Assembly: GCA_001600175.1 (NCBI GenBank)
Contig: BCJC01000005.1
Location: 724,471 to 788,470, forward strand
Length of the DNA stretch: 64,000 nucleotides
Direction: 5' to 3'
Origin: Erythrobasidium yunnanense
Lineage: Eukaryota; Basidiomycota; Cystobasidiomycetes; Erythrobasidiales; Erythrobasidiaceae
Made by a program: the position numbers and the translations under genes. Each line of letters starts with the position of its first letter. Within the stretch, counting starts at the first letter, position 1. Positions 37,149-61,305 of the stretch are shown in pieces. The notes beneath the pieces are model-generated. The model searched no databases and was not told the origin of the DNA. It saw only the letters and a list, made by a program, of their open reading frames with translations.

Positions 37149-37946
37149 TGTATGTTTGTTGTGGTGGTAGAGCAGTGTGTGATGAGTGCAATGAGGAAGA
37201 TAAGATGGAGCATTTTTGCTCCTGCTTTTATATCAGGTTTCGCAGAACAAGGTATAAATAGAGACGCATCAGCAGAACCGAGCAGAGCCGAAGAGTCCCT
37301 ACTGCTATGCGGTGCAGAGCATAAGGACGCGTGCGTATGGAACGTGTAATGCAGTTTTAGCGCAGCGTAGTGTCATGCTGAAGGGTGAAAGGATTGTGCA
37401 GTGCCTTGTTACTTCATCTGCTCGTTTGCCTTGCTCGTTGTGTCAGCTTCCAGACGCTTTCGAACAGATCGTTACCGTACCTATCGTCAAATCCCTGCTG
37501 TATACTGACCGCCATTCGAACAGGAAAAGGGTCACCGCAGGTTGGCTTTCCACTTGCATATAGCATAGCGCATCAAAAACCCTCACCAGCATTTGCCTCA
37601 TCAGCACTTGCACTGAAGTTTCAACAGCAGTGTAGCCGGGACCTCGAATGCACACGCCTGCATTGGCTTCTCCTCACAAAAACAAAGCTTTCTACGATCT
37701 CGCCGCAGGCAAGGAGACTCAGCTCTGCATGCAAGCGCTTCGCACTGCTGGTCCACCTATTTGTCCCTGCGCGGGTCAGTTCAAGCAAAGAAGAAAGCTC
37801 TGAGGCAAAGCAAACTATCATGCTTGAAGGCCGCTTGATTGGTCGACATTTCACCTGCTTAACCAGACCGACGGACGTATAGGGATTACAGACTGAGACT
37901 AACTTGATCTGACTTGAACTGCTTGGACGTACTGGCCGGGAGCGCC
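37149..37946. other. intergenic between the two membrane paralogues
   Basis: 798 bp containing the promoter of gene A (TATA box listed) and the 3' end of gene B. No other gene seen. Confidence 0.5.
37225..37232 (-). promoter_or_regulatory. TATA box of membrane protein A
   Basis: TATAAAAG on the - strand, 77-84 bp upstream of the ATG at 37148. Gene B has a matching box, which supports function. Confidence 0.6.
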
Positions 37947-39246
37947 TCAAACTTTGGAAGGCGGGATTTCTGACGATTTCTTCTCCAGCACATCGAAATT
38001 GTCTGATCCCTCCATTCTGACGTCGCGTTTTTTGGTGAAGTACGTTATGTTGAGCAGGAAGGCGCTGAGTACACTCGTCAGCAAGGCCCTCACTCTTCCT
38101 GCGATAAAATAAACTTACGCGGAGAACTCAGGAAGAACAGTCAGGCAGTACTCAATTACGGTGAACCTGCTAGTGAAGCCATCGCCCTTGTAGTTTTCGC
38201 GACTGCTATAGGAGAGCTGAGGAAATTGTCAGCCGGTCAGCGTTGCCGGTGCCGAAGCAAAGAACGCAGACTTACGCTGGGAATGCCAGCCTGAAGTACA
38301 CCAAAGAGAACCCTGACATTGAGCCAGAAAGCCACGATGGCCAACACGATCAAAGTCGGATGGACTCCCTTTCTCGTGATCCTTCCTTCTCTCTGGTATC
38401 TTCGCTCGTCGAAGAACGTCTTGACCAAGCAGATGGTGAAGGCCACTGTCATTGAGTAGAAGAGGGCTGAGCCGGTCGTTCGGAGAGCTTTAGCTATGTT
38501 CTCTCGATTCTCCAGCTGGGCGGCAGTAAGATCTGAGCGAGTCGAGCCGGCTAAGTAGGAGCCTCCAGTGATGATAAGCGCGCTGGAATCACATGTCAGC
38601 CGCTATACTGGAGTATTAGTCGACCTGCATAGCCTACTTGGCTGGAATCAGGACGGTCTCGACAATAGTCAGGAACTCGGTCTTGTAGTACTTCCAGGGC
38701 ATGAGGAGAGGTTGGAAGGTCAAAGTCTTTCCGAACATGCGCCATGATTCTGCTTTGGTCTGCTTGCTAGGGCGAAGGAAGGAGAATCCGAGGTTGACCT
38801 TCTGCCAGTTCTTGAAGAAGTGGTACGAAGCGAGGGTCTATAAGAAACATCAGAAAGGACACTCATCGAGGAAGGGGTTAGTGTATACCAAGGTGAAGTA
38901 TCCTTCGGCGCCTGCGAACGTCTTGTTCAGCAACCAGTTCACTTCCGAGCGAACGTACGTACCTAAGATGAGGTATGCAATGAAGACATCAGTATTCTCG
39001 AATGCGAGTACTCCGAAAGCCACGCCACATGCCTGTTTCAGATTCTTATCAGATCAAGCTCGCGTGTCTCAGATGATGACCCACCTGTGAAGCTACTCGG
39101 ACGAAGGTATGGAAAGCTAATATAGCCCATCTTGATCTGATCTTGAATCGGTATGTCGAGAAACAGAATACCATCCATACTGCCAGGCCAAAATAGAGGA
39201 TTGCGAATAGGAGTGCTACGCCAGCTTCTGCGCCGAAATGGGCCAT
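37947..39246 (-). CDS. multi-pass membrane protein B, tandem paralogue
   Basis: Exons 39246-39085, 39032-38963, 38911-38889, 38837-38638, 38582-38276, 38216-38119 and 38064-37947 give 325 residues. It aligns with protein A from the first residue (M-A-H-F-G-A-E-A-G-V-A-L-L-F against M-A-H-L-A-K-E-A-S-V-A-L-L-F) to the C-terminal S-K-V. Exons 1, 2 and the penultimate one have identical lengths (162, 70, 98). Gene B has one intron more: A's third exon (223 nt) is split into 23 and 200 nt by an intron at 38838-38888. Function unknown; an integral membrane receptor or transporter-like protein is likely. Confidence 0.8.
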
Positions 39247-39585
39247 CTTGTATACTAACTAGTGTGAAGAAACAAAGATATAAGACTTCACTGGTCTGTT
39301 TTATAGTCAGGATACGGCTACCGAGCAGAGCCGAAGCGTCCGTTCGCACGTCAGCCAAGAAATCACAGGACGCAACAGCCTACATTTAGACCAAGCATCA
39401 GAACTGAAAGAATGAGATGCAATGTAGTCTGCCGATGTAGCTATATCTTGCTTGATTTTGGCTTCAGAGACCGTTCCTGTGCCTGGATCACTCCACTGCG
39501 TCTGTGCCTCCTTCAACTGGGATTCTCTGCTTTCGCCTCTTTCCTTCGCTCCAACTCGTTCGATAAGGATAAGGGATAAGTCAAG
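39247..39585. other. divergent intergenic region
   Basis: 339 bp between the start of membrane gene B and the start of the RRM gene; it contains the TATA box of B and a shared short promoter. Confidence 0.5.
39298..39305 (-). promoter_or_regulatory. TATA box of membrane protein B
   Basis: TATAAAAC on the - strand, 52-59 bp upstream of the ATG at 39246, comparable to the box before gene A. Confidence 0.55.
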
Positions 39586-42895: not shown

Positions 42896-43306
42896 ATCGA
42901 GTGGGTGTTCAGCGGAAGAAAGTCGAGATTTTCCAATTTCAGAGATTTTAATGTGTCGTGTATAGCGATGTTATGCTGTAGCGAATGTTGTCGTAGCAAG
43001 TGGTTAAGTGTAGTTAATGCTTAGTATTCGTGTAGGTAAATGCAGGCTTTTCGCAAACAGAGTTACGCGTGTCAGGTTCAGCGCGTCTTTGGCGCGTCTC
43101 CCGTTCAAACATTTCACAGAGTCTGAGCAGAGTGGGTATAAGCTTGCATTCAAGACTTTACGACTTCAACACTTTCCTTTACACCACTTTCATTACCTTC
43201 GACATCATTGTCCGGCTCCTCACCGCGTCTCTTTGGCCTTCTCGTCAAAGCTTTGGCCGTCGATAATTCTCTGGCTTGAATTTCTGACGATTCTGCGACT
43301 GCCAGA
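42896..43306. other. intergenic
   Basis: 411 bp between two + strand genes. GGTATAAGC at about 43136 could serve as a weak TATA element of the downstream gene. Confidence 0.4.
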
Positions 43307-46150
43307 ATGGACATTCAAGCATCTCCAGAGCCATCACCATCGTCGCAGTCATCTTCTGGACGTCGTGCGGGCCATCTCAAGCGTCTCAGCTTGTCCGTTG
43401 CTCCGCGCGACTTTGCTGGCGAAAGTAGCAGTTCGAGCAGCCTGTTCTCGCCAGAAAGGTCGTCGATATCACCATCTACAAGAAGTAATATTAGTCGTTC
43501 AGATGCCAACTCCCTTCCTTCACCTTTGAACCGCTCTTTGGGCTCCTCGTCAAGGCGTCAGAGGCCACTTTCGCTCTACAGCAACAGTAGCAGTGGTTCG
43601 CAAGGCGCTCTGGATGGCCTCACTGGATCTCCATCTCCTGTAGTGAAAGGTCTGCCAGTGTGCGACGAAGAAGGCTCAGCGCAAGAGGCTACTTTCACGC
43701 CTACCAGCAGCACCACCGCTTCACGTGCTTCGCCTGGTCTACCCTTGACACCTCTGGGTGCAGGAAGATCAGAATTTAATAGCAGTGTAGGGAGGAGGAG
43801 CATATTGGGCCGGTCAGCACATGCGAGGAGGCAGAGCAGTATATCGTACGCAAGATCCCCTTCGGCCGTATCGCCCCTCAATGGCAGCATCAGTGGACCT
43901 TCTACACCCAGGAGCGCAGTCAGCACGCCTAGAGATACACCTGGGCATCCAGGTCTTCCTTCTTCAGCATCATCCGGAGCAAACGTAGGAGATAATGCAG
44001 CTCAGACACCCGCGAGGCTAGACTACTTTGGGGCAGCGAAACCGGCTGCCATCAAGCCGCCCAGTCATATTGCTGAAGAGCGTAACTCTGAAAGCCCTAA
44101 AACAAGCCCTTACAACGAGCTCAATGTCGGGATTGGCGCAAAGAGCGCGGATCTCCTCACTTTCATAGCAAAAAAGGAGCGGAGATGTCTGGATCTCAGA
44201 GAGGGTGAGCGTGCATCTCCCTCCTCTTTAAGATCTTTCCGGCTGACGCGCATCTTCGTCAACAGAACTCAAGCGGAACGAGGAGGAACTAGCGACTCTG
44301 AAGAAGAAATGGGAAGCCATCATCCAACGAGAGATGATGTCCGCAGCAGCAGCAGCATCCTCTGCCGACCAGTCGAGCTCTCCGGCAAGGTCTGATTCCG
44401 CTTCACCTCAACAAAGCACGCACGCGACATCTTCCGCGGGTGGACTTTTCTCCTCCATCACAGCCAGTCTTTCCGCTTCTACTTCCCCCTCTTCCACTTC
44501 TTCAGCTACTACAGCTTCTCCTTCCCCTTCTTCCAGACCTTCATCCGCATCAGCTGCGAATCGAAGGTTATTGACATCTCGGCACAGCATCTCCATCAGC
44601 CCCACCGCTTCCCGTTCTTCAACTTCCGACTCGTATTCCGGAGGTGCGAATCTATCACTACAAGAATCGCCTACTGAGCGAATCGCTGCTACTTCACCGG
44701 GCGGAACCAGCCAAGCGAACTACGATGTTTCGAAGGTAGCGAAGTCGTGGTTGGGAGGAGTCATGAAGCATGCTTCTTCCGTGTTGGAGACACTCGCTCC
44801 GCCTCCCTCAGCTACCTCGGCAAACGATCTAGGGACGGTTCGCGAGGAGGAGGAACCTGAGGAAAGCGATGAGGAGACTAGCGATACCAGACGCCGGCAT
44901 ACGGAGGAAGATAGCAGGAGGATAAGCACGGCTACTGAAGCTACGCTTTCGTCCACGACAAGCAGTAACAGCCCGTCTTCAAGCTATGACACCGAAGAGG
45001 ATGGCAGATTCTCGTCGACTGCAACCAGCAGGTCTAGCAGTATCTCGAGCATGGACACGCACAGTGACTCTTTGCACTTGTCAAAATCGGAAGAATCTGT
45101 TGGGACGCTCAAACAAGGCGGAGACGACATCACGCCCGTCTCGACTCCTCTTCTGCCAGATACGACTCCCCGGGCTGGGAAATCACCAAATACCGAAGTC
45201 GATGACCTATGGGGCCTAGACGGCTTCGAAGATTCTTCAGCTCGTGAGAATAGGGAGAAGCTGGAGCAGGCTAGAATTGATGAAGTGCATACTTCGCCCC
45301 AGAAGAGTAGGACGCCTGTGGAAGCTACGAAGCCGAGTCACGGAAGGAGACGCTCGACTGCCTTTGAGCTAGGTGGTGCTTGGGGAAGCATGATGGGCAA
45401 GAAGTGGAGCGAGGTTGCCAACAGCGAGACGTGAGTAAAGTCGGATAGGTCATAATCAGGAAGTATACTGACTCGGGTGCTCTACACAGTTTCAAGACAT
45501 CCAAGCGGGCTACCATGAACTTTGTCGATACTTTCGAAAGGACACTCGGCGATGCTCTCTTCGAAGCTCCAAACGCCAAGAAAGCATCTCCTGACTCCAG
45601 CCAAGGGTCAATGATGTATCTCAATGGCGAATACGTCCCTTCGTCCGTGGCGGAATCGCCTTCTCCCTCCGAGCGTGAGCGGTCCCTTCCATCTGGCATT
45701 GGAAGTGCAGGAGCATGGAGCACTCTTCTCGGAGGAGGGCGCTCAAAGACTACACCCAAGACCAAAGGCGAAGAATGGACTGCGCAAAGCCCGAATGGCG
45801 ATTTGGGCGAGACGAGTATGTCTCCTTCTTCAGCTTCTGCTCGCAGTCCGGGCGGAAGCAGAAAAGCGAGGATTGCACTCAATGACAATCCGCTAGAAGA
45901 GGATGACGAGTCTTTCGATACCTTCTCCTCCTCTTCTCCCGTTCAACATGCGACTTCTCGCCCGATCTCGACGAAATCGATAAATCTACGACCAGGAGCT
46001 ACGAGGACTAAGCACTCCAAGCGAATGAGTCTGCCTAATAATCTGCTAGTAGGCGAGCCAAGAAAACCTTCCAGCTCTGCTTTCGGACTAGGGCTAGAGA
46101 ACGTCAGTGAGGAAGATAAAGCAGAGACGGAAGATGCTTGGGGGTGGTAG
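43307..46150 (+). CDS. Ser-rich protein with DUF4048-like segment
   Basis: Exons 43307-44204, 44266-45430 and 45490-46150 give 907 residues. Most of it is low-complexity Ser/Thr/Pro. The conserved spot straddles the first intron: A-D-L-L-T-F-I-A-K-K-E-R-R-C-L-D-L-R-E, then E-L-K-R-N-E-E-E-L-A-T-L-K-K-K-W, a charged helix that I associate with fungal DUF4048 proteins. Further short conserved-looking pieces are K-S-W-L-G-G-V-M-K-H near residue 440 and the C-terminal D-A-W-G-W. No enzymatic domain is seen. It is the last gene before the MYND array. Confidence 0.8.
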
Positions 46151-46507: not shown

Positions 46508-47468
46508 ATGTTCGTACACCCAATGCTGCTGAGGGCAGAACTCGAGCAGTTCCCCTACTCGTACTGCAAGACACATGGACAAGGTATGTCTGGAGATGCA
46601 ACGATCCGCGCAGCGTGTGCTTACAAAGGATTTGAACAGAGGTCAGCAGCGAGGTCTGGCTCAGTACTATCGAAGGTTTCGAGTTGGCACTATCGAAAGG
46701 AGTAGACATCAAGGACTCCTCGCTCCAGAACATTATCATGACGGTACGAGTGGCCAACGCTCTTGCCGGCTGGCAGTGCCCAGACAGCGTGCGCATCTAT
46801 CAGGCTATAGCGCATGAGGTGCAGCATCCTTTGCGCTGGTCAAAGCTCAGCGAGGAGAACAAGCGAAGTATGGACGAATACCTCAAGATCTGCGAGAAGT
46901 CGGGCTGCATTGATTCAGACATGTCATTCGATGTCAGGCCGGCGAATGGCAGGGAATGGATTGAAATGGCATGTCGCAAGCAGGAGGATGCACCAAGTCT
47001 AGCTATCGCGGCTGCGATCAATAAAATCTCGGATCCCTCGCTTCGTGAGGAGGTACACATGCAAGTAACCGTCAGTGATATGCAACTATAATATACCGGG
47101 ACTTAATGCTCAGAAGCAACCCTGCTGCAGGCACGAAAGATCAGCAACTTAATGCTCAACAGCCCTCTGTGCAATAAACAGACTTCTAGAACTTGCAGTC
47201 AGTGCCGTAGCACAGATGCTTCCGCTTTGCGAAAATGCTCTAGGTACGATGTCCCTTTGTCGATCTATCTCAGCTGCTTGTTCTGATGCATCCTGCTGCA
47301 AGTTGCCTGGTCCGAGAGTACTGCAGCAAACAATGTCAGAAGAAACACTGGGCTGAGATTCACAAGAAAGAGTGCCCTATCTTTAGCAAGGTCACCAAGA
47401 TACGCATTCCGGACGAGTTAGCTAGAGCTCTCGATGCTTACAATGCTGCTGCTTCTCCCACCTCTTAG
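46508..47468 (+). CDS. MYND array gene 1 (subtype I)
   Basis: Exons 46508-46583, 46640-47064, 47131-47243 and 47303-47468 give 259 residues. The start is M-F-V-H-P-M-L-L-R-A-E-L-E-Q-F-P. The central domain holds L-A-G-W-Q-C-P-D-S-V-R-I-Y-Q-A-I and S-M-D-E-Y-L-K-I-C. The zinc finger begins C-S-Q-C, then K-C-S-S-C, Y-C-S-K-Q-C-Q-K-K-H-W and H-K-K-E-C, so all eight ligands are present. The second intron's acceptor (47130) was chosen to keep phase 0 as in the paralogues; exon 3 is the longest of the array (113 nt). The protein ends in an Ala/Ser tail. Confidence 0.85.
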
Positions 47469-47749
47469 TCTACGTTCAGCCTCAGGCAGGATAGGTGAAG
47501 GCGCATCAAGCAGAGATTAAGATCGCTCTAATTAGTGATCTGGCGTGTCGAGATAGAGAGTCCTTATGCTTGTGACATGCTAAGCGATCTACGTCCCCTA
47601 CCGGAGCCTTCCTCTCTCCGCACGGACCTCCTTACTGTTGATCGCTCTGTTTGGCACATCGAAGAGTTCTACATGCTGATTCCCGCAGGTCTCGCTTCTG
47701 CCCAACTCTCCCACGACTTTCCTCAAAAAGGCTGTCGCAGCACTCCACA

Positions 47750-48724
47750 ATGTTCCTTCAGCCTATGCTCTTGAGAGAAGAGCTTGAGCAGTTCCCTCTC
47801 TCGTATTGTCGGATGGAGGGATTAGGTAAGATGCAGTCGCTGAGTGCTCTAGTAAATATGTTGAGCATGCCTTTGACAGACGCACAAATGAAGAAATGGT
47901 GCAGCGTCGTATGCGGCCTCGAGTTGGCGCTCAAGATGCCGCTCGGGCTGGAAGACCCTATGCTGCAGAACATCCTAAACGAAGTGCGCGCATCAAATGG
48001 CTTCGCTGGCTGGAAATGCCCCGATACTGTTTCGATCTACCAAGCAATCGCACGAGAAGTGCAAGGTCCTCTCAACTGGCACAGCCTCAGCGAACAGACC
48101 AAGCGGAGCATGCACGACTATCTTCAGCACTGCCGGGACAGAGGTGTCGTAGGAGCCGAGTTACTCGTTCAAATGGATGAAACAACCACGACAACGGATC
48201 CCGAAACGGGTGCTCGTTACGTAGAAATGTCTCGCAAGAATGCCGACCCTCAAGATATAGCACTCGCGACTGCGATCAATAAGATCTCGAATCCAGAAGT
48301 CAAGGAAGAGCTCCTACGTGAGAACATGGTAGGTCGAGCTATCTCCGAGTTGCGAAGAAGGGCAAATCGCTGAGACGTCTTTTGAAACGAAAGACTCGGC
48401 GCATGATGCGTATGCGAGGCGAAGAAGACACTTTGAGAATGTGCAGTGGCTGCGAAAGCACGGCCTTGTCAGCGCTCAAGAAATGCTCGAGGCACGTCGT
48501 TTCCGTTTTCGCCTGATTCTATGCTTGCAAACAGCTGACAGCGTTCTCTCTTTCACAGATGTCTTGTGAGGGAATACTGTAGCGTACAATGTCAGAAGAA
48601 ACACTGGTCAGATGGGCACAAGAAGGAATGCTCACACTTCGTCGAAATTACCAGAATACGCATATCGGAAGAGCTGGCGTCGGATCTTCAGGTATACAAT
48701 GCTGCTATGGCTCGCAATTTATAG
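47750..48724 (+). CDS. MYND array gene 2 (subtype I)
   Basis: Exons 47750-47825, 47880-48328, 48394-48491 and 48559-48724 give 262 residues. It is closest to gene 1: M-F-L-Q-P-M-L-L-R-E-E-L-E-Q-F-P, F-A-G-W-K-C-P-D-T-V-S-I-Y-Q-A-I, I-N-K-I-S-N-P-E-V. The finger runs C-S-G-C, K-C-S-R-C, Y-C-S-V-Q-C-Q-K-K-H-W, H-K-K-E-C. Exon 4 is 166 nt, as in gene 1. The last intron begins GC (GCACGT) rather than GT; all other array introns begin GT. Exon 3 starts with a Met/Arg-rich stretch. Confidence 0.87.
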
Positions 48725-49095
48725 TCGCTGTTGGAGAAGCTAGTTAGGCGCGTCTAGGCGGGAGCAGACTCAGGAGAGCAGTCAACTTTCTCGTTCGCCA
48801 ATACGACCTCTGGATTGCATCCCATCATCCCATCATTCCACCGTTGCACCCAAAGCGCACGATGCTTCTCGTCTTCTACTGCGGGCTTTAGCATCGCGGC
48901 CTCCAGAGCACGGACCTCTCCTCTCGCTGCGTCTTCCCGGTCGCTATGTCTGGCTCGTCAAACAACTTCTAGCGCCTTCGCAGCACAATTTCGCTCTCTT
49001 CTTTCTTGTCCTCTTTCTTCGCTCACATCGCCAAACTCGACTCGCTTCTATCACGCGTTGTCTCTCTTTCCTCGAGCAGCACGCAAGCTTCGAAG
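48725..49095. other. spacer, array genes 2-3
   Basis: 371 bp, CT-rich toward gene 3. A frame here resembles a mitochondrial presequence but is not continued in frame into gene 3, so it is not called. Confidence 0.5.
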
Positions 49096-50068
49096 ATGTT
49101 TGTCCAGCCAATGCTGCTGATCGAGGAAGTCGAGCAGGTCCCGCACTCGCTTTGTAGGAACATGGGACAAGGTATGTAGGAGTGTCGGGTGCTTCATCGC
49201 GGCTTTGCATGGCTCACCTCGTCCTGCAGACGTTTCAGTTGCGATCTGGAACTCGTTCTTGGAGGATATACAGAGTCTGCTCAAAACCGCACAGCTTTCG
49301 GATGACGCACTGCAGAACAAGATTATCTGGGCTCGCGCGATCAATGGCAAATCCGATTGGCGCGCTCCTTTCCCCAAGCTCGAACCATACCAAGAGATCG
49401 CACGCGAAGTCCAGACTCCAGTAGATTGGCTTTCGCTGAATATCGGAGATCGCGAAAGTCTGGACGATTACATACAGTCCTGCCTCTCTTGTCCCATCGA
49501 ATCAGCACTTCGAACGGGCGCAGCGCTTCCAGGTCCCATTTACGCTCAAACACAGGCGGATAAGACGCGACTCATCGTACCCGACGGATTGGCGCGACCT
49601 TTTGAAGACGTTATAACGGCTTTTTGTAAGGTCGGCAATCGGGATTTGATGAAGAAGATTATGCAGGCCAACATAGTAAGCGGCGACTCTGAAACCATCC
49701 CCGAGCATTGAAGCTTACTGATCAATTGATGACAGAGCACCATCGTGTCCCTGACCTCTTCATCAGTCTCCACCGGACGAACTTTTGGGAGATGCTTTAG
49801 CTGTGCCGCCAAGTGTGATCCTCTACTCAGATGCTCCAGGTGAGTTGACAAGCTGTCGAAGGCCACGAAGGTATACTGAGTAGTGGCTTTCAGATGCAGA
49901 ATAGCAGAGTATTGCGGAGCTTCATGCCAGAAGACAGGCTGGAAGAGTGGGCACAGCAAAGAGTGCGCCAAGTTCGTAGAGGTGCTCGACATCATGGTGC
50001 CAGCTAGCATCTCAGACTTGCTCAAGAAGCATCGCCCGGACACTCTCAAGGTCCTTGGTCAGGCTTGA
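49096..50068 (+). CDS. MYND array gene 3 (subtype II)
   Basis: Exons 49096-49171, 49230-49675, 49736-49839 and 49894-50068 give 266 residues. The start is M-F-V-Q-P-M-L-L-I-E-E-V-E-Q-V-P. The central part has Y-Q-E-I-A-R-E-V-Q-T-P and S-L-D-D-Y-I-Q-S-C. The finger is C-F-S-C, R-C-S-R-C, Y-C-G-A-S-C-Q-K-T-G-W, H-S-K-E-C. The C-terminus L-L-K-K-H-R-P-D-T-L-K-V-L-G-Q-A defines subtype II and looks like an amphipathic helix. Intact. Confidence 0.88.
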
Positions 50069-50495
50069 ACGACTTGGGACGCGATAGAGCCGGTTCTGGA
50101 GACAGCCTGTAAGTTACCGGTATGCGAAGCCGCTGCCAATGTGGTGATGGCCTGAGACGTAAGATGATGAACCGAATAGCTTCTGAACCCGATGTACAAA
50201 ATGTCGCATTCGCCGAATGAAGAGGCTCTCCTTTGTCTTTCTCCTTCGCATACGAAGCCCACAGTCTGTTTCAGGGAGACTTGAGCGAAGCTCATCTAGA
50301 ACGATGCTGTTCATCGCAATACAACTGCCCTACCATCCATGCAAAGAAGACGCGTCAATGACTTTTGCGGAACCGTACCTCACAGTCACAGACCGTCGGA
50401 TCTCAACCTAGCTGAAGAATCGCGAGCAGCAGAATGCTCGAAGGTTGCTTTCGCTCACCTATCTCACTGCTGCTATCACTCGGCGCTGTCCGCAA
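50069..50495. other. spacer, array genes 3-4
   Basis: 427 bp, nothing recognised. Confidence 0.5.
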
Positions 50496-51497
50496 ATGTT
50501 CCTACAACCCATGCTGACCGTCGAAGAGCTCGAGCAAGTCCCGTATTCTCTGTGCAAAACTGCGGGAAAGCGTGAGCATCGCGACTCAACATCGCTAGAC
50601 CGCAACATCTACTGTCCCTGCATCAGAAACCAATCCCGAAGTCTGGCAGACCTACTTGGCAGACTTGGGCCAGCTGCTTGAGGCCAACACACCTTTGGCC
50701 GATGAGCGCTTGCAACGAAAGATCACATGGGCTCGTACTGTCAATGGTCAGGCTGGCTGGATCGCTATCTATGGCCTCACCGACTATCAAAATATCGCCC
50801 GCGAGGTCCAGTTTCCGACGGATTGGCACAATCTGAGCACAGAGGATCGAGAAAGTCTGGGTGGTTACATCGAGTTGCGCCTGACAGGGCCAACGGATAG
50901 CGAGATGGCAGTCAAGCCCAACTCAAGCTCGCTGCATGTTGGAATCGCGACGGGCCCGCATCGACATCACCTCAGCGTCTCAACGGAGGCTGCAAAGCCA
51001 CTGTTTGCTCAAACTATGCAAGCCTTCGGTCGCATCAAGAAGAGGGAGCTTTTGGACAAGATCATGGGCGCTACGAGGGTGAATAGCCTGCGCTGATGTC
51101 GTTCCGGTTCGCATTGTGCTGACTTCTTTGATTGTGGTATCAAGACACAGTTGGAGGTCAACGCGCCTTTCATGTCTCCGTATGAAGCGCGATGCACAGC
51201 TTGCAAGGCCCCTCAAGCTGCTAGCGAGTTGCAGAGATGCGCCAAGTGAGCTGGCTTCCATAGCTATGAAGCTACATGCTGACAATTTATATTAATACTA
51301 GATGCAAGGTGCCTCGATACTGTGGAGTCGCTTGTCAGAGAGCGGACTGGAGGGAAACACACAAGGCGGACTGTGGCCTTTTTACGACAACAGTATCCAT
51401 CAAGGCTCCGGACTTTGGAAGCACTCAACAACTACCGCACGGAGACTCTCAAATTTCTCGGACGTGCTTGAGGGATTGGCCGCTTGTCATGTCCTAG
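50496..51497 (+). CDS. MYND array gene 4 (subtype II), tail frameshifted
   Basis: Exons 50496-50571, 50627-51078, 51151-51245 and 51302-51497 give 272 residues as read. The start is M-F-L-Q-P-M-L-T-V-E-E-L-E-Q-V-P, and the middle has Y-Q-N-I-A-R-E-V-Q-F-P. The finger is complete (C-T-A-C, R-C-A-K-C, Y-C-G-V-A-C-Q-R-A-D-W, H-K-A-D-C). After K-A-P-D-F near 51413 the in-frame tail (G-S-T-Q-Q-L-P) is unlike its relatives. The +1 frame instead reads L-E-A-L-N-N-Y-R-T-E-T-L-K-F-L-G-R-A then stop, the subtype II C-terminus. So one small indel has changed the last about 25 residues; the finger itself is unaffected. Confidence 0.82.
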
Positions 51498-51949
51498 GCT
51501 ACTTCATCGCTCTGAAGGGGATTGTTGCGTCTGTCTAGATTGACGACCAGACCAATCATAGCGTCCGTAACTTGATTGATTGCTAGAGGAACGTTGTCGA
51601 ATCGATCCGAAGTGATTTGTATCTCTTCGACTCCTGCACATAGCTTCATAATCGGCGAAGACTGCAAGCCTTGCACAATGCAATGAATGCCACATTGAAC
51701 ACGATGCTGCTTGCTCGTGAGTGCAGCGTTTCAGTCCTGCCGACCTGCACCATCGACAAGCCCGTGGGCCTTCGGAGGCCTTCCTGACTCGAGAAGCGAT
51801 GCCAACTGTCCGCTGAGGTTGCCCTTCCATCGACTCTGACACTGTGACACCTCTGCTGGTCGCTGCAAACCGTACTTATTGCAATAGACCTGCATCCCAC
51901 GACCTCCTCGTCTGGGCGGCACACCGTCTGAACGTGTAAACACGGAACT
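51498..51949. other. spacer, array genes 4-5
   Basis: 452 bp. Cys-rich frames on the - strand do not make a proper zinc finger and are not called. Confidence 0.5.
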
Positions 51950-52918
51950 ATGTTCACTCAGCCCATGCTTCTGAAGGAGGAGCTTCAACAGTACCCTATG
52001 TCGTACTGTATCCTTCACAGAGATGTAGTTGCTGAAGGTGCGGCTCCCTATACCCGTGCCGATTGCTATATCTGACCCAGCCACCATGGAACTGCAGACT
52101 TCAAGCTGAATATCTGGTCCCAAGCTACCGATATTCTAACGTCAGCATTGGTTGCTCGAGAACCTGTTCCGGAGGCTGTGATCCAGTCTTTGATCACTCA
52201 GATCCGAGCAACTCTCTTCAAGTCTGGTTGGATGTGCCTATCAAATATCCGTTACCACGTTTACCAAACCTTCTCTGCCGAAGTGCTCTTACCGCTGTGC
52301 TACAGCTCGCGCAGCGTCGAAGATCAGGATAGTATGGCCGACTATCTTCAGGTTTGTCTGTACGCTGGCAACGCAGCAGCTGCATTGTATCAGCTCGTGG
52401 AAGGTATGGGACCGAGCCCAGGTGAAGAATTTGAGGTCGAGATATGCCGTACCGTGGGAGACCTCGCTAAACCCGCATCCAAGATGGTCACCGATGCGAT
52501 CAGCAAGATTAAAAACACGGATATCATCAGCGACATTGAGGCTGAACACAGGGTAAGCTTCGGGGTTTCAAATACTAGGGACCGGAAAGGCTGAAAGCTG
52601 TTACAGCCCGGCCTCATGCTGAAGATACCATACGGTGGAGGTGTGGTATTGGTCGAATGCAGCCAATGCTGCAACGAAGATTTCGAGAAGCTGCAGCGAT
52701 GTGCCAGGTAAGCCGTCCATACAATGTTGTTGCCGGTCAGCTCTTTTTCTGAGTCCCAACTTCACAGATGTCGGCTCAGGAATTATTGCGATCCAGAATG
52801 CCAGAAGGCACATTGGAACAGCATACAAAAAGAGGAATGCTCTCGCTTCGCTGAAGTTATGAGCTGCCAAGTACCCGGCGCTCTAGCTGCTGAGCTTGAT
52901 GCTCTCGCAGCCGATTAA
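51950..52918 (+). CDS. MYND array gene 5 (subtype III)
   Basis: Exons 51950-52037, 52098-52552, 52607-52707 and 52768-52918 give 264 residues. The start is M-F-T-Q-P-M-L-L-K-E-E-L-Q-Q-Y-P. The central domain closely matches gene 7: D-I-L-T-S-A-L-V-A-R, F-K-S-G-W, Q-D-S-M-A-D-Y-L. The finger is C-S-Q-C, R-C-A-R-C, Y-C-D-P-E-C-Q-K-A-H-W, then Q-K-E-E-C where the nine relatives have H: the usual His ligand is Gln here. The C-terminus A-L-A-A-E-L-D-A-L-A-A-D marks subtype III. Confidence 0.88.
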
Positions 52919-53152
52919 TATAGCCAACCCAGCTATGAGCGGACAGTCCTTCGTCTGCATCACAGAATGAGGAAGAGGGAACAAGAATCACAAGAACTAC
53001 TAAAGCTTAATCAGATGTTGTCATACGTTTACCAAGGCTGCGTCATCTCCGCGACGCGCGCCTAGCTCGGCAAAGCGCACGGACCCAACTAACGTTTTCG
53101 CGTCGAACGCTTGCCTTTGCAGGTTGTCTTCCTACGATTCAGTTCTCCCAAA

Positions 53153-54145
53153 ATGTTCTTACAGCCAATGCTTCTTATCGAGGAGCTCGAACAACTTCCA
53201 TACTCTTTATGCAAGTATTTGGGCAAGGTTGAAGGTAAGGCGTCCACTGATGCCATATGCTGCGCTCTGGCTGATTAAGAACCTCCCTAGGCGGGCCTAT
53301 GGGCTTCTGGACTTCGTTTCTAAAGGACTTGCAGAAGTTCGTCGGTACCGCGCCTCTTTCAAGCAACGAGGTCCAAAAGCAGATCATCTGGGCTCGAACA
53401 ATGAACGCCCGAGCTGGCTGGCGAGCACCGTTCGGCCTTATTCCTTATCAAATTGTCGCGTGCGATATTCAAACAACGATCGAATGGTGGTCCCTAGGCG
53501 AATCAGACAAAGAGAGTCTAGATGATCATATTCGCTGCTGCCGATCAGCTCCGACCCATGCAGATCTCCTTCCGAAAGCTTCTGGATCTTTGGAGTTTAC
53601 GCTGGCACATGGCAAGAAGGACTCATTGCCCCTCTACATGTCATCCGAAGTCGCGGACCCACTTATCTTGGAAATTCGAAAGTCGTACCGCAAGATCAGT
53701 AATCCGACAATTCGGAAGAAGCTTCATGATCATTCCGACGTAAGCAATTCAGATTACTTATGCACAAGATGGGAGAAGCTCACTTCCTGTAACGTATCTA
53801 GGATAGTGACAAGAATTGTAATGATCCGTACGACTATACGGCGCGATGTGTATGCTGCCTTGCACGCGATGGTCTCGTAACGCTGCTCAGATGCTCCAGG
53901 TTAGTGCACGCTTTATCGAGCTTGCCAGCGCCTGTCGAAGATAATGCGGCTCCTCCTTCGTCTTCAATAGGTGCAAGGTTCCGCAATACTGCGGTTTGAA
54001 GTGCCAGAAAGAAGATTGGAAGCAAGGCCATAGGCACGCTTGCAGTACCTTCGGTGCTTTGACTGCCATCAGAACCCCAGACTCTCTTGCAGAGATGCTG
54101 AAGAAGTATCGCGCAGACACACTCAAGACGCTTGGAGTTGCATGA
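53153..54145 (+). CDS. MYND array gene 6 (subtype II)
   Basis: Exons 53153-53234, 53291-53739, 53802-53899 and 53971-54145 give 267 residues. The start is M-F-L-Q-P-M-L-L-I-E-E-L-E-Q-L-P. The middle has R-A-G-W-R-A-P-F-G-L-I-P-Y-Q and S-L-D-D-H-I. I-S-N-P-T-I-R-K-K-L precedes the second intron. The finger is C-V-C-C, R-C-S-R-C, Y-C-G-L-K-C-Q-K-E-D-W, H-R-H-A-C. The C-terminus M-L-K-K-Y-R-A-D-T-L-K-T-L-G-V-A is intact. Exon 1 is 82 nt, two codons longer than in other subtype II members. Confidence 0.88.
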
Positions 54146-54643
54146 GGGACTATCGCAACCGCGGTAGACATCGGCAGCTGGGAAGTTTGCTGGTCAAAGG
54201 GCGCTTACTGTAAATGTCGGAGGAAAGACAGCGCCTGAAGTAGACTACTACATCGATGTCTGCATGTAGTGTAGAAGCTGTCAAAGTTGCGCGGTGTCGA
54301 GTGCCTGAAAGCTAGCTTTGCTTTCTTCTAGGTCTACTTTCTTCTGCTCTCATCATGGATCATCAAGACTCGCTAGCATGAGGCAGCAGATACACCATGC
54401 GAATACAGACGATGTTGCTAAGATCGAATATGCATCGCATCGCGCTGGATGCTGTCAAACTCGCAATCCTGGCTCGAGCCTCGACAACTCGGAACACTAC
54501 CTGAGCTGACGAACGCGCGCCATCAGTCTTCGCAGCTTGTCTTCGTGCCAACCGCGACTTCTACTTCTGCAAGCTGATCTGCACCGTCCCGCATCAGCAT
54601 TTACGTCTCGCACGACCTTCCATCTACCAGCATCCTCGCAAGC
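54146..54643. other. spacer, array genes 6-7
   Basis: 498 bp, nothing recognised. Confidence 0.5.
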
Positions 54644-55648
54644 ATGTTCATTCAGCCCATGCTTCTAAGGGCGGAACTCAAGCAGTATCCTATATCGTAC
54701 TGTATCGTTCACGGTGACGTAGATGCCGAAGGTGCGATTTCCGTCTATCCTGCCCGTTTGGCATACCCGACTTACCTCCCATCAACTGCTGTTGACAAAG
54801 GCTTCAAGCTCACCACCTGGTCAAAAGCTATTGATATTCTGACGTCAGCACTGGTCGCTCGAGATAACGTTCCGGAGGCTGTAATCCAGTCTCTGCTTTC
54901 TGACATCAGGGCAACCAATTTCAAGTCTGGCTGGACGTGCCCGCCGAGTGTAGAGCGTTACGTATATCAAACTCTCTCAGCAAGAGTACTCCTACCGCTG
55001 CGCTACAGCTCTCACAGTACCGAAGATCAGGATAGTATGGCCGACTACCTTGAGGTCTGTCTGCATGCCGGCGGCCTTGGAGCTACGATGTGCCAACTCG
55101 CGACAGGTCCGGGACAAAGATTGGGGGAAAAGTACAAGCGCAGCATATACACTGCTGTGTCAGACCTCGCGAAGCCCAAGTCCAAGAGCGTCGTTGCCGC
55201 TATCAGCAAAATCAAGAACCCGAAGATCATAAAGGACATCAACGCTGAACATAGGGTGAGCGGAGTGTTCTCGGTATCTATGAGACACAGAGACACAGTG
55301 GTCGCTAAGAGCACTTACAGCCCGCCCTGATGCTCGGCCTCCTGGGCGGCGATGATTTCACTCGCCTCGAATGCAGCCAATGCTGTGTCGGGGACTACCA
55401 CAAGCTTCAAAGATGTGCCAGGTAGGTCTTATCTGGCAGACTTTCTAGTCGACTGGATTCGTCTCTGACTTTCTTCAATCAGATGTCGGGTTAGGAAGTA
55501 TTGCAGTCAGGAATGCCAGAAAGCACATTGGATCGACAAGCACAAGGAAGAGTGTCCTCGCTTCGCTGCAGTTACAAGCTATAAGATACCCAGCGCTCTA
55601 GCTGCCAGACTCGACGCGATTCAGGCCGCCGACAAGATCAAACCGTAG
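54644..55648 (+). CDS. MYND array gene 7 (subtype III)
   Basis: Exons 54644-54731, 54801-55255, 55321-55421 and 55483-55648 give 269 residues. Exons 1-3 have exactly the lengths of gene 5 (88, 455, 101). The start is M-F-I-Q-P-M-L-L-R-A-E-L-K-Q-Y-P. The middle has F-K-S-G-W-T-C-P-P-S-V and Q-D-S-M-A-D-Y-L-E-V-C. The finger is C-S-Q-C, R-C-A-R-C, Y-C-S-Q-E-C-Q-K-A-H-W, H-K-E-E-C. The first intron is 69 nt and stop-free, so its retention would only add 23 residues; homology favours removal. Confidence 0.88.
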
Positions 55649-56222
55649 CTGAAAGACAATCGAGGAAGGAGAGGGAATTCAATGTCATCTGTATGAGAAG
55701 TAACCACCCACTCTCTGCAGCCGCTCGGATACGCGTGAATGCCTAGCGATGCCACAGCCCGTTTCGATTCCGCAGCTGGATGTCGTAAAAAGAGAAAGAA
55801 TGATTTGGAGTAGAGATCCGATGGCTTCTTGAGCACTATTCTCATCGTCTGTAAATGCTAGTGAAGCTTGCGATGTCTGAGTCGAAGTCGAAGCTTCTCC
55901 GCCTGTCTTTGTTCTTCGTACATCTTCACATAGCAATTCGTGTGTTTGCAATTCTCGACAAAACGCCAGAGATTATGATTGAAGACCATGCTGTTCTTAC
56001 GAAGACAATGAGCAGTCTTGAAACGCCAACAACTGGATGATACGGCTCGCAGACCTAGGCCTGGGTATAGCGGATCGCCAGAAGTGAACAGAACAATATC
56101 GCGCCGACCATCCGCAGCTTGTCTCTGCCTCAACTGTCCTCTCCTGAATCCTTGTCTTGACGAGCCTCTCCTCTAGGGAGGCGTACAGCTTCTACCGTCT
56201 CAAGCTGGCTTGCAGCGCTGAC
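55649..56222. other. spacer, array genes 7-8
   Basis: 574 bp, the longest spacer in the array; nothing recognised. Confidence 0.5.
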
Positions 56223-57245
56223 ATGGGCAACGAGCAAAGCATGGCTGCTGTAAAGATGCACTTAAGCATGGCGAAACAGCCAATGATCACGAAAACGGAG
56301 CTCAAGCAATACCCTTACTCCTACTGCGTTGTGCAGACTGTGAACCCGTCACTGAAAGGTGCGACTTTCCGATTTTTACAGCCAAGCAAACGCTGAATGG
56401 GACCAGCAATGTCTTTCACTGTCCAGCTATCACTCTGGAGCACTGGCAACTGGTCATACACCTCTTCTTGTCAACGTTGGTCAAGGGGGACGAGAGCTCC
56501 TATGCTTTGGCCCAAGACTACGTTACCAATATCAGGGCAATGAATTACTGGGCAGGATGGAAATGTCCTGAATCAAAGCGGCCATACCAAGTCGTATGCG
56601 GCGCCGTTCTTGCGCCGCTCTTGCCTATGTTGCGCAGTGCAGAAGACGAAGACACCGTCTCCGACTATCTAGATCTATGTTTACACATGGCCATGATGGG
56701 ATCCGCCATGCCAAATATGGGCGGAAACTCTGACCTTGTCGCCCACGATGCTGCCAGAAGCGATAGGGCCTACAATGCTCTCAAAAGAATCAAAAATCCC
56801 GACATACTGAAACACCTGGAGGGAAAGAATCTGGTAATGCTTGCTAACACCGCATGGAGGGGTATGCTGAGAGCTTTCGTAGCCCAAATTGGTCTTCGAT
56901 ATTTTGAAAGAACCGCATCATACTCCGCTATTCTGCAGCCAGTGCCACATCGAGGATGCTTCGAAATTACAAAGATGCTCGAAGTAAGTACAAATCGAGA
57001 TTCCTTCAGAAAGATTCGTGCTGACGTGAGAGGCCTTAAGATGTCGGATTAGAAACTATTGCAGTCCGGAATGCCAGAAAATCCATTGGGCTAGCAAGCA
57101 CAGAGAAGAATGTCCGCGCTCTGCGGAAGTCACGAGCTATAAAATACCTAGCGCTCTAGCTGTCGAACTTGATGCGATCGAGGCAGCCGCAAGCGAAGAA
57201 TCTGCAGCCCGCAGACAAGCATCGCAAGCTTCAGAGAGTGTCTAA
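56223..57245 (+). CDS. MYND array gene 8 (subtype III)
   Basis: Exons 56223-56358, 56427-56833, 56883-56983 and 57041-57245 give 282 residues; starting at the ATG at 56268 would give 267 and fits the relatives better (M-A-K-Q-P-M-I-T-K-T-E-L-K-Q-Y-P). The middle has W-A-G-W-K-C-P-E-S-K and I-K-N-P-D-I-L. The finger is C-S-Q-C, R-C-S-K-C, Y-C-S-P-E-C-Q-K-I-H-W, H-R-E-E-C. It has the longest last exon (205 nt), adding a Ser/Ala/Glu tail. The acceptor at 56426 was chosen because nearer ones give a 23-nt intron or the wrong frame. Confidence 0.82.
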
Positions 57246-57433
57246 TTATGTAGTTCTCTGTGTTAGCCATCTGTTGTCGATACATCCACCCAGCCAAACT
57301 TCGTCGCGTCCCTTTACGCGTCTTCGGCGCCGTTTGCGCACACTCCATCCGTGTCAACAAGGCTGCAAAAACTAGACGAGTCGTTCTTGCAGCTTTCCTT
57401 CTGCCATCTACTACTCTCGCGATCCTTTCGAAA

Positions 57434-58340
57434 ATGTTCTTGCAGCCAATGCTTCTTATCGAGGAACTCCGCCGCTTCCCTTACTCGCTCTGCACAGATG
57501 ACGAGCGAGGTATGATCTTTGGTGCATTTCTGCGCAGCTTGAATTCTCATTGACACGCTGTTCGCAGCGCCGTCTCTCCAGCTCTGGACAGACTTCCTTG
57601 AATCTCTCGAACGCCTCGTTGACAAAGCTCCCCTTTCCGATGAACTTCTGCAGCAGATCATCATCTCTGTTCGCAGCTGGAATAACCAAAGGACCTGGTC
57701 AGACTCGTATGGCGTCTCTCGCTACCAAACCGTTGCTCGCGCCATTCAAGAACCGGCGAAATGGGAGACTTTGAGCAAAGAAGATCGCGACAGCATGGAC
57801 GACTACATCCAGTACACCTTATCTCACACTCTTGGTGACGGCAACGTCTGTAGCGATAGGATGTTCGCAAAACTACACGAGGCGCACGACAAGATCAGGA
57901 ACCCTGCAATCAGACGGGCCATTGACGAATACATGGAAGTGGGTCATGACATTTCTCGTCTCATTGATCTGCAGGGATTTATGCTGATGTGGTATGCGCC
58001 TTCTAGGCAGACATGGCTCGCTGGAGTTTCTTAGACCCTTCCGATTAACAATGTTCGTTCTGCCAAGAAGTAGGCACGTCAGTGGACCTGCAGAGGTGTG
58101 CAAAGTGAGCTTCTTCTGCGAGTCTGAAGATAACCAGCGGTGCAAAGCTGATAGCGGCTCTTCAGATGCAAAGTCTCGATTCATTGCGGACCCGAATGCC
58201 AGAGGGCGCATTGGAAGGAAGCGCATAAGCAGCAATGCAGCGACTTCGTAAAGATGTTCGCCATCAAAGTGCCGCCCTCGCTCGTCGAAGCTCTCAATAG
58301 GCATCGGCCAGCGACTTTGAAAGTACTGAAGGCCGCATGA
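57434..58340 (+). pseudogene. MYND array gene 9 (subtype II) with in-frame stop
   Basis: Exons 57434-57509, 57568-57938, 58007-58104 and 58166-58340 would encode 239 residues. The start is M-F-L-Q-P-M-L-L-I-E-E-L-R-R-F-P, with R-Y-Q-T-V-A-R-A-I and S-M-D-D-Y-I in the middle. A TAA at 58046-58048 lies one codon before the first zinc-finger Cys (C-S-F-C). Everything after it is intact: C-A-K-C, C-G-P-E-C-Q-R-A-H-W, H-K-Q-Q-C, then T-L-K-V-L-K-A-A and a normal stop. Exons 3 and 4 have the same lengths as in gene 6 (98, 175). As read, the product is about 160 residues without the finger. Young pseudogene or a truncated form. Confidence 0.75.
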
Positions 58341-58769
58341 GCCTTCGCATTGGAGAAGCGGTGGTCTGAGGAAAGAAACACAATCCTGTTAAGGCTTAAC
58401 ATGTTGTCTTTGAAGGCCAGTGTTGTATCTACAGTTTTGTCTAAAAATGGGATTCCCGTCTATTCTTCTTCTGCTCAACTGACATCGACGAAAGACCGAC
58501 AAGCGATGCTGTTATAGTCGGAAGCGCAACTCAATCACTTTGATTACCATCACAGTTGCAAGCCTGGCTTCACTTTCGACGGCTCTGAAACTCCGATACA
58601 CCTTCGCTGATGTACGCGACCCTCATGCAGCTTGTCATTCAGGCGATTGCGAAGATTTGATACACTGCTGAGCGCATCTTCTCACAATGTCGCAGTATCT
58701 TCTGCGGATCACAGCACGACCAGTATCACGCACCTTTGCTGGGGTACGCAAGATTGAAGCGAGGACAGC
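58341..58769. other. spacer, array genes 9-10
   Basis: 429 bp, nothing recognised. Confidence 0.5.
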
Positions 58770-59748
58770 ATGCTGAGCCAACCGATGCTTCTCAAGTCGG
58801 AGCTCTAACAGTATCCTCTTTCCCACTGTGTCGTGCATGGTAACAACCTTTGGGAAGGTACGAGAAGCTACAACTCCATTTCTATATGCCCTTGCCTGAC
58901 TAGTGTGAACATTCTTGGTGGCACAGATTCTGAGCCAGCTTTCTTAAGGCAGAACTTAGACTCTATGCTGTCAGCGCTAGTCGACGGAGTCATATCGGCT
59001 CTCAAATTGCAAATCATGATTATTCAAATCAGAGCAGTAAACCACATGGCAGGCTGGCAATGCCCGTCATCCGTACAGATCTATCAAGCAGTGTCTGGCA
59101 TGGTCCTGTTCCAGCTACTGCCCATGACACGCAGTGAAGAAGATCGGGAGAGCCTGTCCGCCTTTTCCAAGGTCTGCTTTCAAGCCGCCATCCTGGGAGT
59201 CAGGTTGCGAGAATTAGACCAGGAGTCTTTACAGAATCTTAATCCCGAGACTATGGCGAAGGAACAGCTCGCAAGAGAATTTACCAATCCAAAGGGCAAA
59301 ACCGTCATCAATGCTATCAAGCAAATTACATGTCCGGAGATTTTGACTAGGGCCGATCTGGAGAATCTTGTAAGGAGCATACATCCAGCCTTTCGCCTGA
59401 CATTGCTGAGCGTCCTCGTGCCAAGCCCAAGGAAGTGCTGGATTCGGTCAGAGGAATGGGTAATATTCCTATACCCTGTAGCGGGTGCCGGAGCATCAGC
59501 AAACCTGAGTTGCAAAGGTGTGCTAGGTAGGCTGTATCCGCAAGTATCTTCGGATGTTTATGCTCAAATCCACTTTAAACAGATGTCGTGTTAGGAATTA
59601 CTGCAGTCCGCAGTGTCAGAAAGATCACTGGGTAGAGACGCACAGGGAAGAGTGTCCTCGCTTTCAAAAGATCACGAGCTGGAGAATGTCGCCCGCTGTA
59701 ATCGCCAAACTCGATGCGATTGCAGCCGCCAATGCGGCTAAGCCGTAG
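58770..59748 (+). pseudogene. MYND array gene 10 (subtype III) with in-frame stop
   Basis: Exons 58770-58857, 58927-59369, 59426-59526 and 59583-59748 keep frame throughout. Codon 13 is TAA (58806-58808): M-L-S-Q-P-M-L-L-K-S-E-L-stop-Q-Y-P. The relatives have CAA, CAG or AAG there. Downstream is complete: M-A-G-W-Q-C-P-S-S-V-Q-I-Y-Q-A-V, C-S-G-C, R-C-A-R-C, Y-C-S-P-Q-C-Q-K-D-H-W, H-R-E-E-C, and an Ala-rich end. Exons 1, 3 and 4 have the lengths of gene 7 (88, 101, 166). Initiation at the in-frame Met near 58972 could still give a protein without the N-terminal motif. Confidence 0.75.
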
Positions 59749-59994: not shown

Positions 59995-60468
59995 ATGTCA
60001 GGCCGTCGGGAGGACGTACGCATGATCCCGCTCGGGTTACAGGGAAGACCAGCCCCGCTTGTATGTGAATACTTCGAGATTATCAGGCTTGAGGAAGAGA
60101 AAGGAGCCTTCGTCATAGTGTGGACAGCGGACACATTCGTGGAGCGTAAGCTCCGAATATCCATTCGCGATCCTCTCTTCACTAGGCGCACACGTGGAGG
60201 GTATGGAACTACTCTGCCTGAGGCCGAGCAGGAGCTTAAGCAAAACTGGCTAGTCGAGAGTCACGGCTATTGGCTGTCAGCCAAAGGGCTAGCAAGTGGA
60301 AGGGTTTGGCAATCTCATATGGGAGACGACAGTCTTATTGAGCGTCCCCATGGTCTGGTAGGCGCAGAGATAGTCGCGGGCGCTCGCTATGGCAAGTACA
60401 CTGGTCAGAGGCTCACTCCTCAACGAAGGCGACGTAGACGACGTCAGTTCAACTCTGGCATGTCGTGA
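59995..60468 (+). CDS. small unknown protein, first of a related pair
   Basis: A single exon of 157 residues from the ATG at 59995. The core is Y-F-E-I-I-R-L-E-E-E-K-G, then F-V-E-R-K-L-R-I and a Trp-containing middle (Q-N-W-L-V-E-S-H-G-Y-W), then S-L-I-E-R-P-H-G-L-V-G-A-E-I-V-A-G-A-R-Y-G-K-Y-T. The tail is a run of Arg. The same blocks recur in the frame at 60898-61305, which argues for real coding. I recognise no known family. No signal peptide or membrane segment. Confidence 0.6.
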   Translation: MSGRREDVRMIPLGLQGRPAPLVCEYFEIIRLEEEKGAFVIVWTADTFVERKLRISIRDPLFTRRTRGGYGTTLPEAEQELKQNWLVESHGYWLSAKGLASGRVWQSHMGDDSLIERPHGLVGAEIVAGARYGKYTGQRLTPQRRRRRRRQFNSGMS

Positions 60469-60897: not shown

Positions 60898-61305
60898 AAC
60901 GCATCCATAATCCAGACGAGGCTGGCTACGGAGCCATCGATCCACCCTCGGGCAATCGTAGAACACTTCGAGATCCTCAGACTTGAGGAGAAGGATGGGG
61001 TGCTTTCGATAGTATACAGATCAGTCACGTTCAGGGAGCGAAGACTCAGATATCCTGGTCGCTCTCTTCTCGCCCTTCTTCCTCCGGGGCAGCGTAGTAT
61101 GGCTGAAGCCGCCGCTGAGTTTAAGCGAAGATGGCCAGTTGAGGACATAGGCCATTGGTACCACGATAAGAAGGGGGGAGGTGGACGAGTATGGGGCGGT
61201 AGTGACAGCCCAGTTCTCATCGAGCGTCCTGAGGGTTTGATTGGGGCAGAAGTAGTTAAGGGCGCTCGATTTGGCCGATACACTGATCGCAGACGTAACA
61301 GGTGA
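60898..61305 (+). pseudogene. second copy of the small unknown gene, no start seen
   Basis: The open frame runs from just after a TGA (60895-60897) to a TGA at 61303-61305. It matches the upstream gene: H-F-E-I-L-R-L-E-E-K-D-G, F-R-E-R-R-L-R-Y, E-F-K-R-R-W-P-V-E-D-I-G-H-W-Y, V-L-I-E-R-P-E-G-L-I-G-A-E-V-V-K-G-A-R-F-G-R-Y-T. No in-frame ATG precedes the conserved block. Either an upstream exon supplies the start or the copy is 5'-truncated. Confidence 0.5.

What the first reader, a model, noticed from the sequence alone, without database searches (positions are those of the whole stretch)
46508..59748. Ten-gene tandem MYND zinc-finger array with an undescribed N-terminal module
All ten share a short N-terminal motif (Q-P-M-L-L-x-x-E-L-x-Q-x-P) and an about 150-residue central domain that I cannot match to any known family, joined to a C-terminal MYND finger. 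Same strand, same four-exon layout, same intron phases (1, 0, 2), and the last intron always splits the finger after its third Cys pair begins. This is a single expanded family lying as a block between conserved genes (DUF4048 gene and RPN1). MYND fingers bind proline-rich peptides; a set of diversified adaptors for regulation, self/non-self recognition or host interaction is possible but is inference.
Basis: partly seen in the sequence, partly recalled or inferred. Interest (0 to 1): 0.9.

Follow-up and report, generated by a model that had tools for sequence, protein, structure and literature searches.

The report
Ancient tandem MYND-finger gene array
A fungal-looking chromosome piece carries ten old, diverged side-by-side copies of one gene that join a strongly kept start motif and a fast-changing, probably helical middle to an ordinary zinc finger of a peptide-gripping kind; the parts outside the finger matched nothing in the libraries searched.

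Summary
The array is real. Ten paralogs lie head to tail at 46508-59748, + strand, with a MYND finger (Pfam E 4.5e-6 to 1.2e-9 in the eight scanned in full). The central domain (exon 2) has no credible match in Pfam, NCBIfam, PHROGs, PDB sequences or PDB/viral folds; a moderate model (pLDDT 72) is all-helical. The copies form groups A (g3,g4,g6,g9), B (g5,g7,g8,g10) and C (g1,g2). Silent change is saturated or nearly so in most pairs, yet exceeds amino-acid change in 45 of 45: an old family. Two copies look broken (g9, g10); g4 has a shifted tail. The striking feature is the conservation profile: the first 20 residues (0.67 mean column identity) are kept better than the finger (0.48), while the middle drifts (0.27). 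Peptide-groove residues of BS69/ETO/DEAF-1 are kept (Y 9, Q 10, W 10 of 10). Best reading: intracellular MYND adaptors with a common anchor, common groove and divergent middle; function is inferred. MYND expansion in basidiomycetes is already on record as counts. DUF4048 was not confirmed; RPN1 was. No fungal proteome could be searched, so novelty is provisional.

The parts
46508..47468 (+). g1 (group C): exons 46508-46583, 46640-47064, 47182-47243, 47303-47468; 242 aa, open
   Evidence: corrects; zf-MYND E 3.9e-9
47750..48724 (+). g2 (group C): exons 47750-47825, 47880-48328, 48394-48491, 48559-48724; 262 aa; intron 3 has a GC donor
   Evidence: zf-MYND E 2.8e-8
49096..50068 (+). g3 (group A): exons 49096-49171, 49230-49675, 49736-49839, 49894-50068; 266 aa, open
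   Evidence: zf-MYND E 2.6e-8
50496..51497 (+). g4 (group A): exons 50496-50571, 50627-51078, 51151-51245, 51302-51497; 272 aa; finger present, C-terminal tail frame-shifted against siblings
   Evidence: zf-MYND E 1.2e-9
51950..52918 (+). g5 (group B): exons 51950-52037, 52098-52552, 52607-52707, 52768-52918; 264 aa, open; zinc-ligand His is Gln
   Evidence: zf-MYND E 4.5e-6
53153..54145 (+). g6 (group A): exons 53153-53234, 53291-53739, 53802-53899, 53971-54145; 267 aa, open
   Evidence: zf-MYND E 3.4e-8
54644..55648 (+). g7 (group B): exons 54644-54731, 54801-55255, 55321-55421, 55483-55648; 269 aa, open; intron 1 has no stop in frame
   Evidence: zf-MYND E 2.2e-8
56268..57245 (+). g8 (group B): exons 56268-56358, 56427-56833, 56883-56983, 57041-57245; 267 aa, open; diverged start, start codon uncertain
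   Evidence: zf-MYND E 3.4e-9
57434..58340 (+). g9 (group A), probably broken: exon pieces 57434-57509, 57568-57938, 58052-58104, 58166-58340; no acceptor usable for the first Cys pair, TAA in frame two codons before it
   Evidence: finger not scanned by Pfam
58770..59748 (+). g10 (group B), probably broken: exon pieces 58770-58857 (in-frame TAA), 58927-59369, 59411-59526 (acceptor uncertain), 59583-59748
   Evidence: finger not scanned by Pfam
54803..55255 (+). central domain of g7 (exon 2), the stretch that was folded with the other nine exon-2 translations as alignment
   Evidence: A1; model pLDDT 72.2, pTM 0.70, seven helices

Best explanation
An old tandem family of intracellular MYND-finger adaptor proteins, evolving by birth and death. 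Each protein has three parts: a 20-residue start motif under the strongest constraint, read as a docking tag for one partner shared by all copies; a divergent, predicted all-helical middle of about 150 residues, read as the part that sets each copy's own partner or pairing; and a C-terminal MYND finger whose peptide groove is kept, read as binding a short proline/leucine motif in a regulatory protein. Shown: the copies, the architecture, the conservation profile, saturated silent sites with slower amino-acid change, the damaged members, the kept groove residues. Inferred: the adaptor role, the shared partner, intracellular location, and that the middle gives specificity.
For: Zf-MYND in 8 of 8 full proteins. 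Y194, Q200, W204 (g1 numbering; 9, 10 and 10 of 10) have the spacing of BS69 Y540, Q546, W550, which PMC4742278 calls strictly conserved non-zinc residues important for the interactions of BS69, ETO and DEAF-1 (passages read); the Gln+Trp double mutant of ZMYND8 lost nearly all binding to a PPPL-motif peptide (PMC13196413, passages read). Mean column identity: residues 1-20 0.67 (95% bootstrap 0.52-0.81), finger 0.48 (0.37-0.59), finger without zinc ligands 0.36, core 0.27 (0.23-0.31), tail 0.30. Fourfold sites at identical residues agree in 0.32 (start, 39/122), 0.33 (core), 0.30 (finger), so the start is kept as protein, not by recent DNA copying. Silent exceeds amino-acid change in 45 of 45 pairs. 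A and B groups 100/99 each, C 80/83. Yeast Mub1 is a MYND protein of a ubiquitin-ligase complex (PMC3567142, passages read).
Against: From my own knowledge Y/Q/W are common to many MYND fingers, so they show competence, not a ligand. Of two fingers compared with the PDB, that of g7 finds SMYD proteins only and that of g1 finds ZMYND12, ANKMY1, SMYD3 and ZMYND10 ahead of DEAF-1 and ETO; these act in varied ways. A drifting middle could be a loosely constrained scaffold. The bootstrap intervals of start and finger overlap. dS is below 1 in 1 of 45 pairs only (g5/g7), so other ratios are rough. No expression or localisation data.
Confidence: 0.5

Rival explanations
1. Transcription or chromatin co-regulators of development, as MYND genes of mushrooms are annotated: each copy recruits a co-repressor at a stage of growth.
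For: In Ganoderma lucidum 50 zf-MYND genes annotated as transcription factors were expressed across three stages; 13 were differentially expressed and 10 of these were highest in primordia or fruiting body (PMC9386254, passages read). MYND grooves bind co-repressor motifs in animals (passages).
Against: No DNA-binding domain reached its cut-off in the eight full proteins (a sub-threshold Repressor_Mnt at E 0.21 in g6); 'transcription factor' in that paper rests, as I read the passages, on domain annotation. This is a sub-case of the adaptor reading.
Confidence: 0.2
2. Substrate adaptors of a ubiquitin ligase, like Mub1 with Ubr2: the start motif docks to the ligase and the middle or finger picks substrates.
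For: Mub1 precedent in yeast (PMC3567142, passages); a constant tag plus a variable middle is what a set of substrate receptors would show.
Against: Similarity to Mub1 outside the finger was not tested. No ligase showed up among the 20 flanking ORFs given to Pfam, but the window was not scanned in full (79 ORFs of 110 aa or more) and no neighbour is required.
Confidence: 0.12
3. A recognition or effector repertoire (self/non-self or host interaction) diversified by selection.
For: Tandem array, damaged copies beside open ones, very divergent middles.
Against: Silent exceeds amino-acid change in 45 of 45 pairs; highest finite whole-gene dN/dS 0.55 (g5/g6), with 21 of 45 pairs giving no finite dS; highest finite regional value among five pairs 0.42 (g3/g6 tail). 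Divergence is old. Secretion was not tested by a predictor.
Confidence: 0.06
4. A relic array, drifting towards loss.
For: g9 and g10 look broken, g4 has a shifted tail, g2 a GC donor.
Against: Eight of ten models are open from start to stop, seven of them without a shifted tail; amino-acid change lags silent change; start and finger are kept. Lesions could also be assembly errors.
Confidence: 0.08

Closest known systems
MYND zinc finger (PF01753) as in BS69/ZMYND11, ETO/CBFA2T1, DEAF-1
   Same: Zinc ligands with MYND spacing and the groove residues Y, Q, W
   Different: Here the finger is C-terminal to an unmatched domain and a kept start motif, in ten tandem genes
SMYD lysine methyltransferases (SMYD3 finger is the best PDB match for the g7 finger, E 2.4e-5)
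   Same: Finger sequence
   Different: No SET domain match at E<=1 in any of the eight full proteins
Mub1 of yeast (SamB as its filamentous relative is recalled)
   Same: Fungal MYND protein that acts in a complex (passages)
   Different: Whole-protein similarity, size and layout were not compared here
Lineage-specific zf-MYND expansions of basidiomycetes
   Same: Counts run from 1 (Malassezia globosa) and 2 (Ustilago maydis) to 11 (Sporobolomyces roseus), 26 (Rhodotorula glutinis) and a mean of 41 in seven Agaricomycetes (PMC4469406 Table 3; part 1 of 3 of that section read)
   Different: That table gives counts only; whether those proteins share this start motif and middle is unknown

Membership tests
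MYND zinc finger proteins (PF01753) | Pfam gathering score reached | tested here: met
   8 of 8 full proteins, 27.1-38.5 bits against 22.7; g9 and g10 not given in full
MYND zinc finger proteins (PF01753) | C4-C2HC zinc ligands | tested here: met
PxLxP/PPPL-binding MYND subgroup | groove residues Tyr, Gln, Trp | tested here: met
   9, 10 and 10 of 10 against BS69 Y540, Q546, W550
PxLxP/PPPL-binding MYND subgroup | binds such a peptide | not testable with these tools
   needs a binding assay
SMYD methyltransferases | SET domain split by the finger | tested here: not met
   no SET match at E<=1 in eight full proteins
Mub1-type ligase adaptors | similarity to Mub1 outside the finger; ligase partner | not tested
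   no fungal protein collection at hand; Mub1 sequence not fetched
Known family for the central domain | significant profile, sequence or fold match | tested here: not met
   nothing credible; fungal protein databases and AlphaFold DB were not available
DUF4048 (flanking gene) | Pfam match | tested here: not met
   unspliced ORFs 43280-44392, 44247-45431, 45449-46147, none at E<=10; a spliced model was not tried

The most novel reading that the evidence does not exclude
The kept start motif Q-P-M-L-L is itself a ligand for the family's own MYND fingers (P-x-L, as in PxLxP and PPPL motifs), so that copies close on themselves or link head to tail with sibling copies. The array would then encode a self-assembling or self-inhibiting set of adaptors in which the divergent helical middles decide who pairs with whom. 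For: P-M-L or P-M-I stands at residues 5-7 in 10 of 10; PPL occurs in none of the ten, and PxLxP in one (g3, residue 74). Against: P-x-[L/I] also occurs one to five more times elsewhere in 9 of the 10 proteins; the double proline whose loss, together with the next two residues, abolished ZMYND8 binding is missing; residue 8 is Thr in g4 and g8. No structure or binding test was made.
Probability: 0.1. Interest if true: 0.65.

Novelty: new variant of a known kind. Interest (0 to 1): 0.42.

Why it matters
Basidiomycete genomes differ many-fold in MYND gene number, and none of the passages I saw says what most of these genes do. A compact array of ten old paralogs, with a start motif kept better than the zinc finger, gives a handle: it points to a docking site that all copies share and that can be tested with short peptides, and to a middle domain that may define a new family.

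Tried and rejected
Profile and fold matches for the middle domain: Pfam best E 0.018 to DUF2268, one member of ten; PHROG 11752 E 0.0085, one member; NCBIfam E 0.014 and 0.016, one member each; PDB sequences one chain at E 0.85 (repeated by oversight); Foldseek nothing at E<=0.001 in PDB or BFVD, best 0.87 and 0.77. All read as chance. In the full proteins the best match besides MYND families was TackOD1 in g2, E 0.0014, 18.6 bits against a cut-off of 32, overlapping the finger; not accepted. Relatives in viral contigs (query g2 only: one stretch matched a pattern, none confirmed) and prokaryote genomes (query g7 only: 40 stretches, none confirmed).

Co-duplication of A-B gene pairs (order C C A A B A B B A B) was considered: g5/g7 has dS 0.87 while g4/g6, the A pair that should match it, is saturated, so no block duplication is claimed. 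Trees on my alignments of full proteins and of exon 2 also give A and B (bootstrap 100/100 and 99/99); order inside A and B is unsure.

Papers: ten searches, the cap; among the papers listed (lists are capped) none was, by title and start of abstract, about a tandem MYND array of this kind. Beyond listings I saw passages of PMC4469406 (and part 1 of 3 of its section 8), PMC2644716, PMC7499883, PMC4742278, PMC13196413, PMC3567142 and PMC9386254. PMC3555993 was seen only in a listing, as one search failed.

In one search my groove pattern also caught the wrong site in g3, g5 and g7; the alignment is the count used.
Full report
Observation. The window holds ten head-to-tail genes on the + strand between 46508 and 59748, 188 to 619 bases apart. 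None of 213 tblastn HSPs of the ten modelled proteins falls elsewhere in the window. The 3' half of the finger, written as a pattern with the copies in view, occurs 10 times on the + strand, never on the - strand and never in 100 mononucleotide shuffles. My first automatic model of g1 had a wrong third exon with a stop; it was corrected. Splice sites were chosen with the siblings in view, so the common phases 1, 0, 2 are partly built in; still, 29 of 30 introns start GT, 29 of 30 end AG, 19 of 30 hold CTNAY, and the median length is 60 (range 41 to 117).

The last intron separates Cys 3 from Cys 4. g9 reads TAA-CAA-TGT into its first finger Cys, with no AG between TAA and Cys. g10 has a stop in exon 1. 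The g4 tail reads in another frame than its siblings'. g2 intron 3 begins GC. DUF4048 was not found in three unspliced flanking ORFs at E<=10; RPN1 was found. Two small paralogous ORFs (43-44% identical) lie between array and RPN1.

Parts of the protein. Zf-MYND was found in 8 of 8 proteins scanned in full; g9 and g10 were given as exon 2 only, where no finger lies. The middle, exon 2, was scanned for all ten: no Pfam, NCBIfam or PHROG match is credible, and a profile of it finds no PDB sequence (one chain at E 0.85). AlphaFold2 with the ten-row alignment gave seven helices, pLDDT 72.2, pTM 0.70, without a Foldseek match at E<=0.001 among PDB chains or viral models. With ten sequences the model is only moderate, so a missing fold match says little.

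Evolution. Pairwise identity of the middle is 16-64%. The tree splits the copies into A (g3,g4,g6,g9) and B (g5,g7,g8,g10), each at 100/99, and C (g1,g2) at 80/83. Silent change per site exceeds amino-acid change in 45 of 45 pairs; only g5/g7 has dS below 1 (0.87, dN/dS 0.30), and the highest finite ratio is 0.55 (g5/g6). Fourfold sites at identical residues agree no better in the start motif (39 of 122, 0.32) than in the middle (0.33), so the start is kept by selection on the protein. Mean column identity is 0.67 in residues 1-20, 0.48 in the finger, 0.36 in the finger without zinc ligands, 0.27 in the middle and 0.30 in the tail; the intervals of start and finger overlap. The best 20-column stretch of the middle reaches 0.40.

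Mechanism. In BS69, ETO and DEAF-1 three non-zinc residues, Y540, Q546 and W550 of BS69, matter for the peptide (PMC4742278, passages). The same places hold Y in 9 of 10, Q in 10 of 10 and W in 10 of 10 here. So the groove looks competent. A tag-like start kept across copies, a groove kept across copies and a drifting, probably helical middle suggest a set of adaptors that share one partner and differ in another. Those last steps are inference. The bolder thought, that the start motif is the finger's own ligand, rests on P-M-L/I at residues 5-7 in 10 of 10, and is weakened because P-x-[L/I] occurs elsewhere too in 9 of the 10 proteins.

What is known. PMC4469406 Table 3 lists zf-MYND counts of 7, 11, 26, 3, 7, 4, 2, 2 and 1 in nine Pucciniomycotina and Ustilaginomycotina species and 41 on average in seven Agaricomycetes. 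Moniliophthora perniciosa has 25 gene models (PMC2644716, passage). Expansion as such is therefore known. Whether those genes carry this start motif and middle could not be tested: no collection here holds fungal genomes or proteomes. The ten searches of the paper library, named in Tried and rejected, listed no paper that by its title or start of abstract deals with such an array.

Verdict. A real, old, partly decayed tandem family with an ordinary finger and an unmatched N-terminal two thirds. The start motif is the most interesting part and the easiest to test.

Noticed in passing
60067-60465 and 60961-61293, +: Two small tandem paralogous ORFs, 43-44% identical, no Pfam match at E<=10, between the MYND array and RPN1.
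   Followed up: partly
about 36162-37232 and 38240-39258, -: A second tandem gene pair; three ORF pieces 59-63% identical; function not looked at.
   Followed up: no
54732-54800: Intron 1 of g7 has no stop in frame, so its retention would add 23 residues.
   Followed up: no
49315-49329 (approx., g3 exon 2, residue 74): g3 alone carries a full PxLxP motif, the classical MYND ligand, in its middle domain; window place estimated, not computed.
   Followed up: no
10277-11701, -: PDCD2 C-terminal domain gene; PDCD2 proteins often have their own MYND finger (recalled).
   Followed up: no
2741-3628 +, 6286-6933 +, 31120-32043 -: Landmark genes for placing the window: MTHFR, mitochondrial ribosomal protein L20, HMG-CoA reductase.
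   Followed up: no
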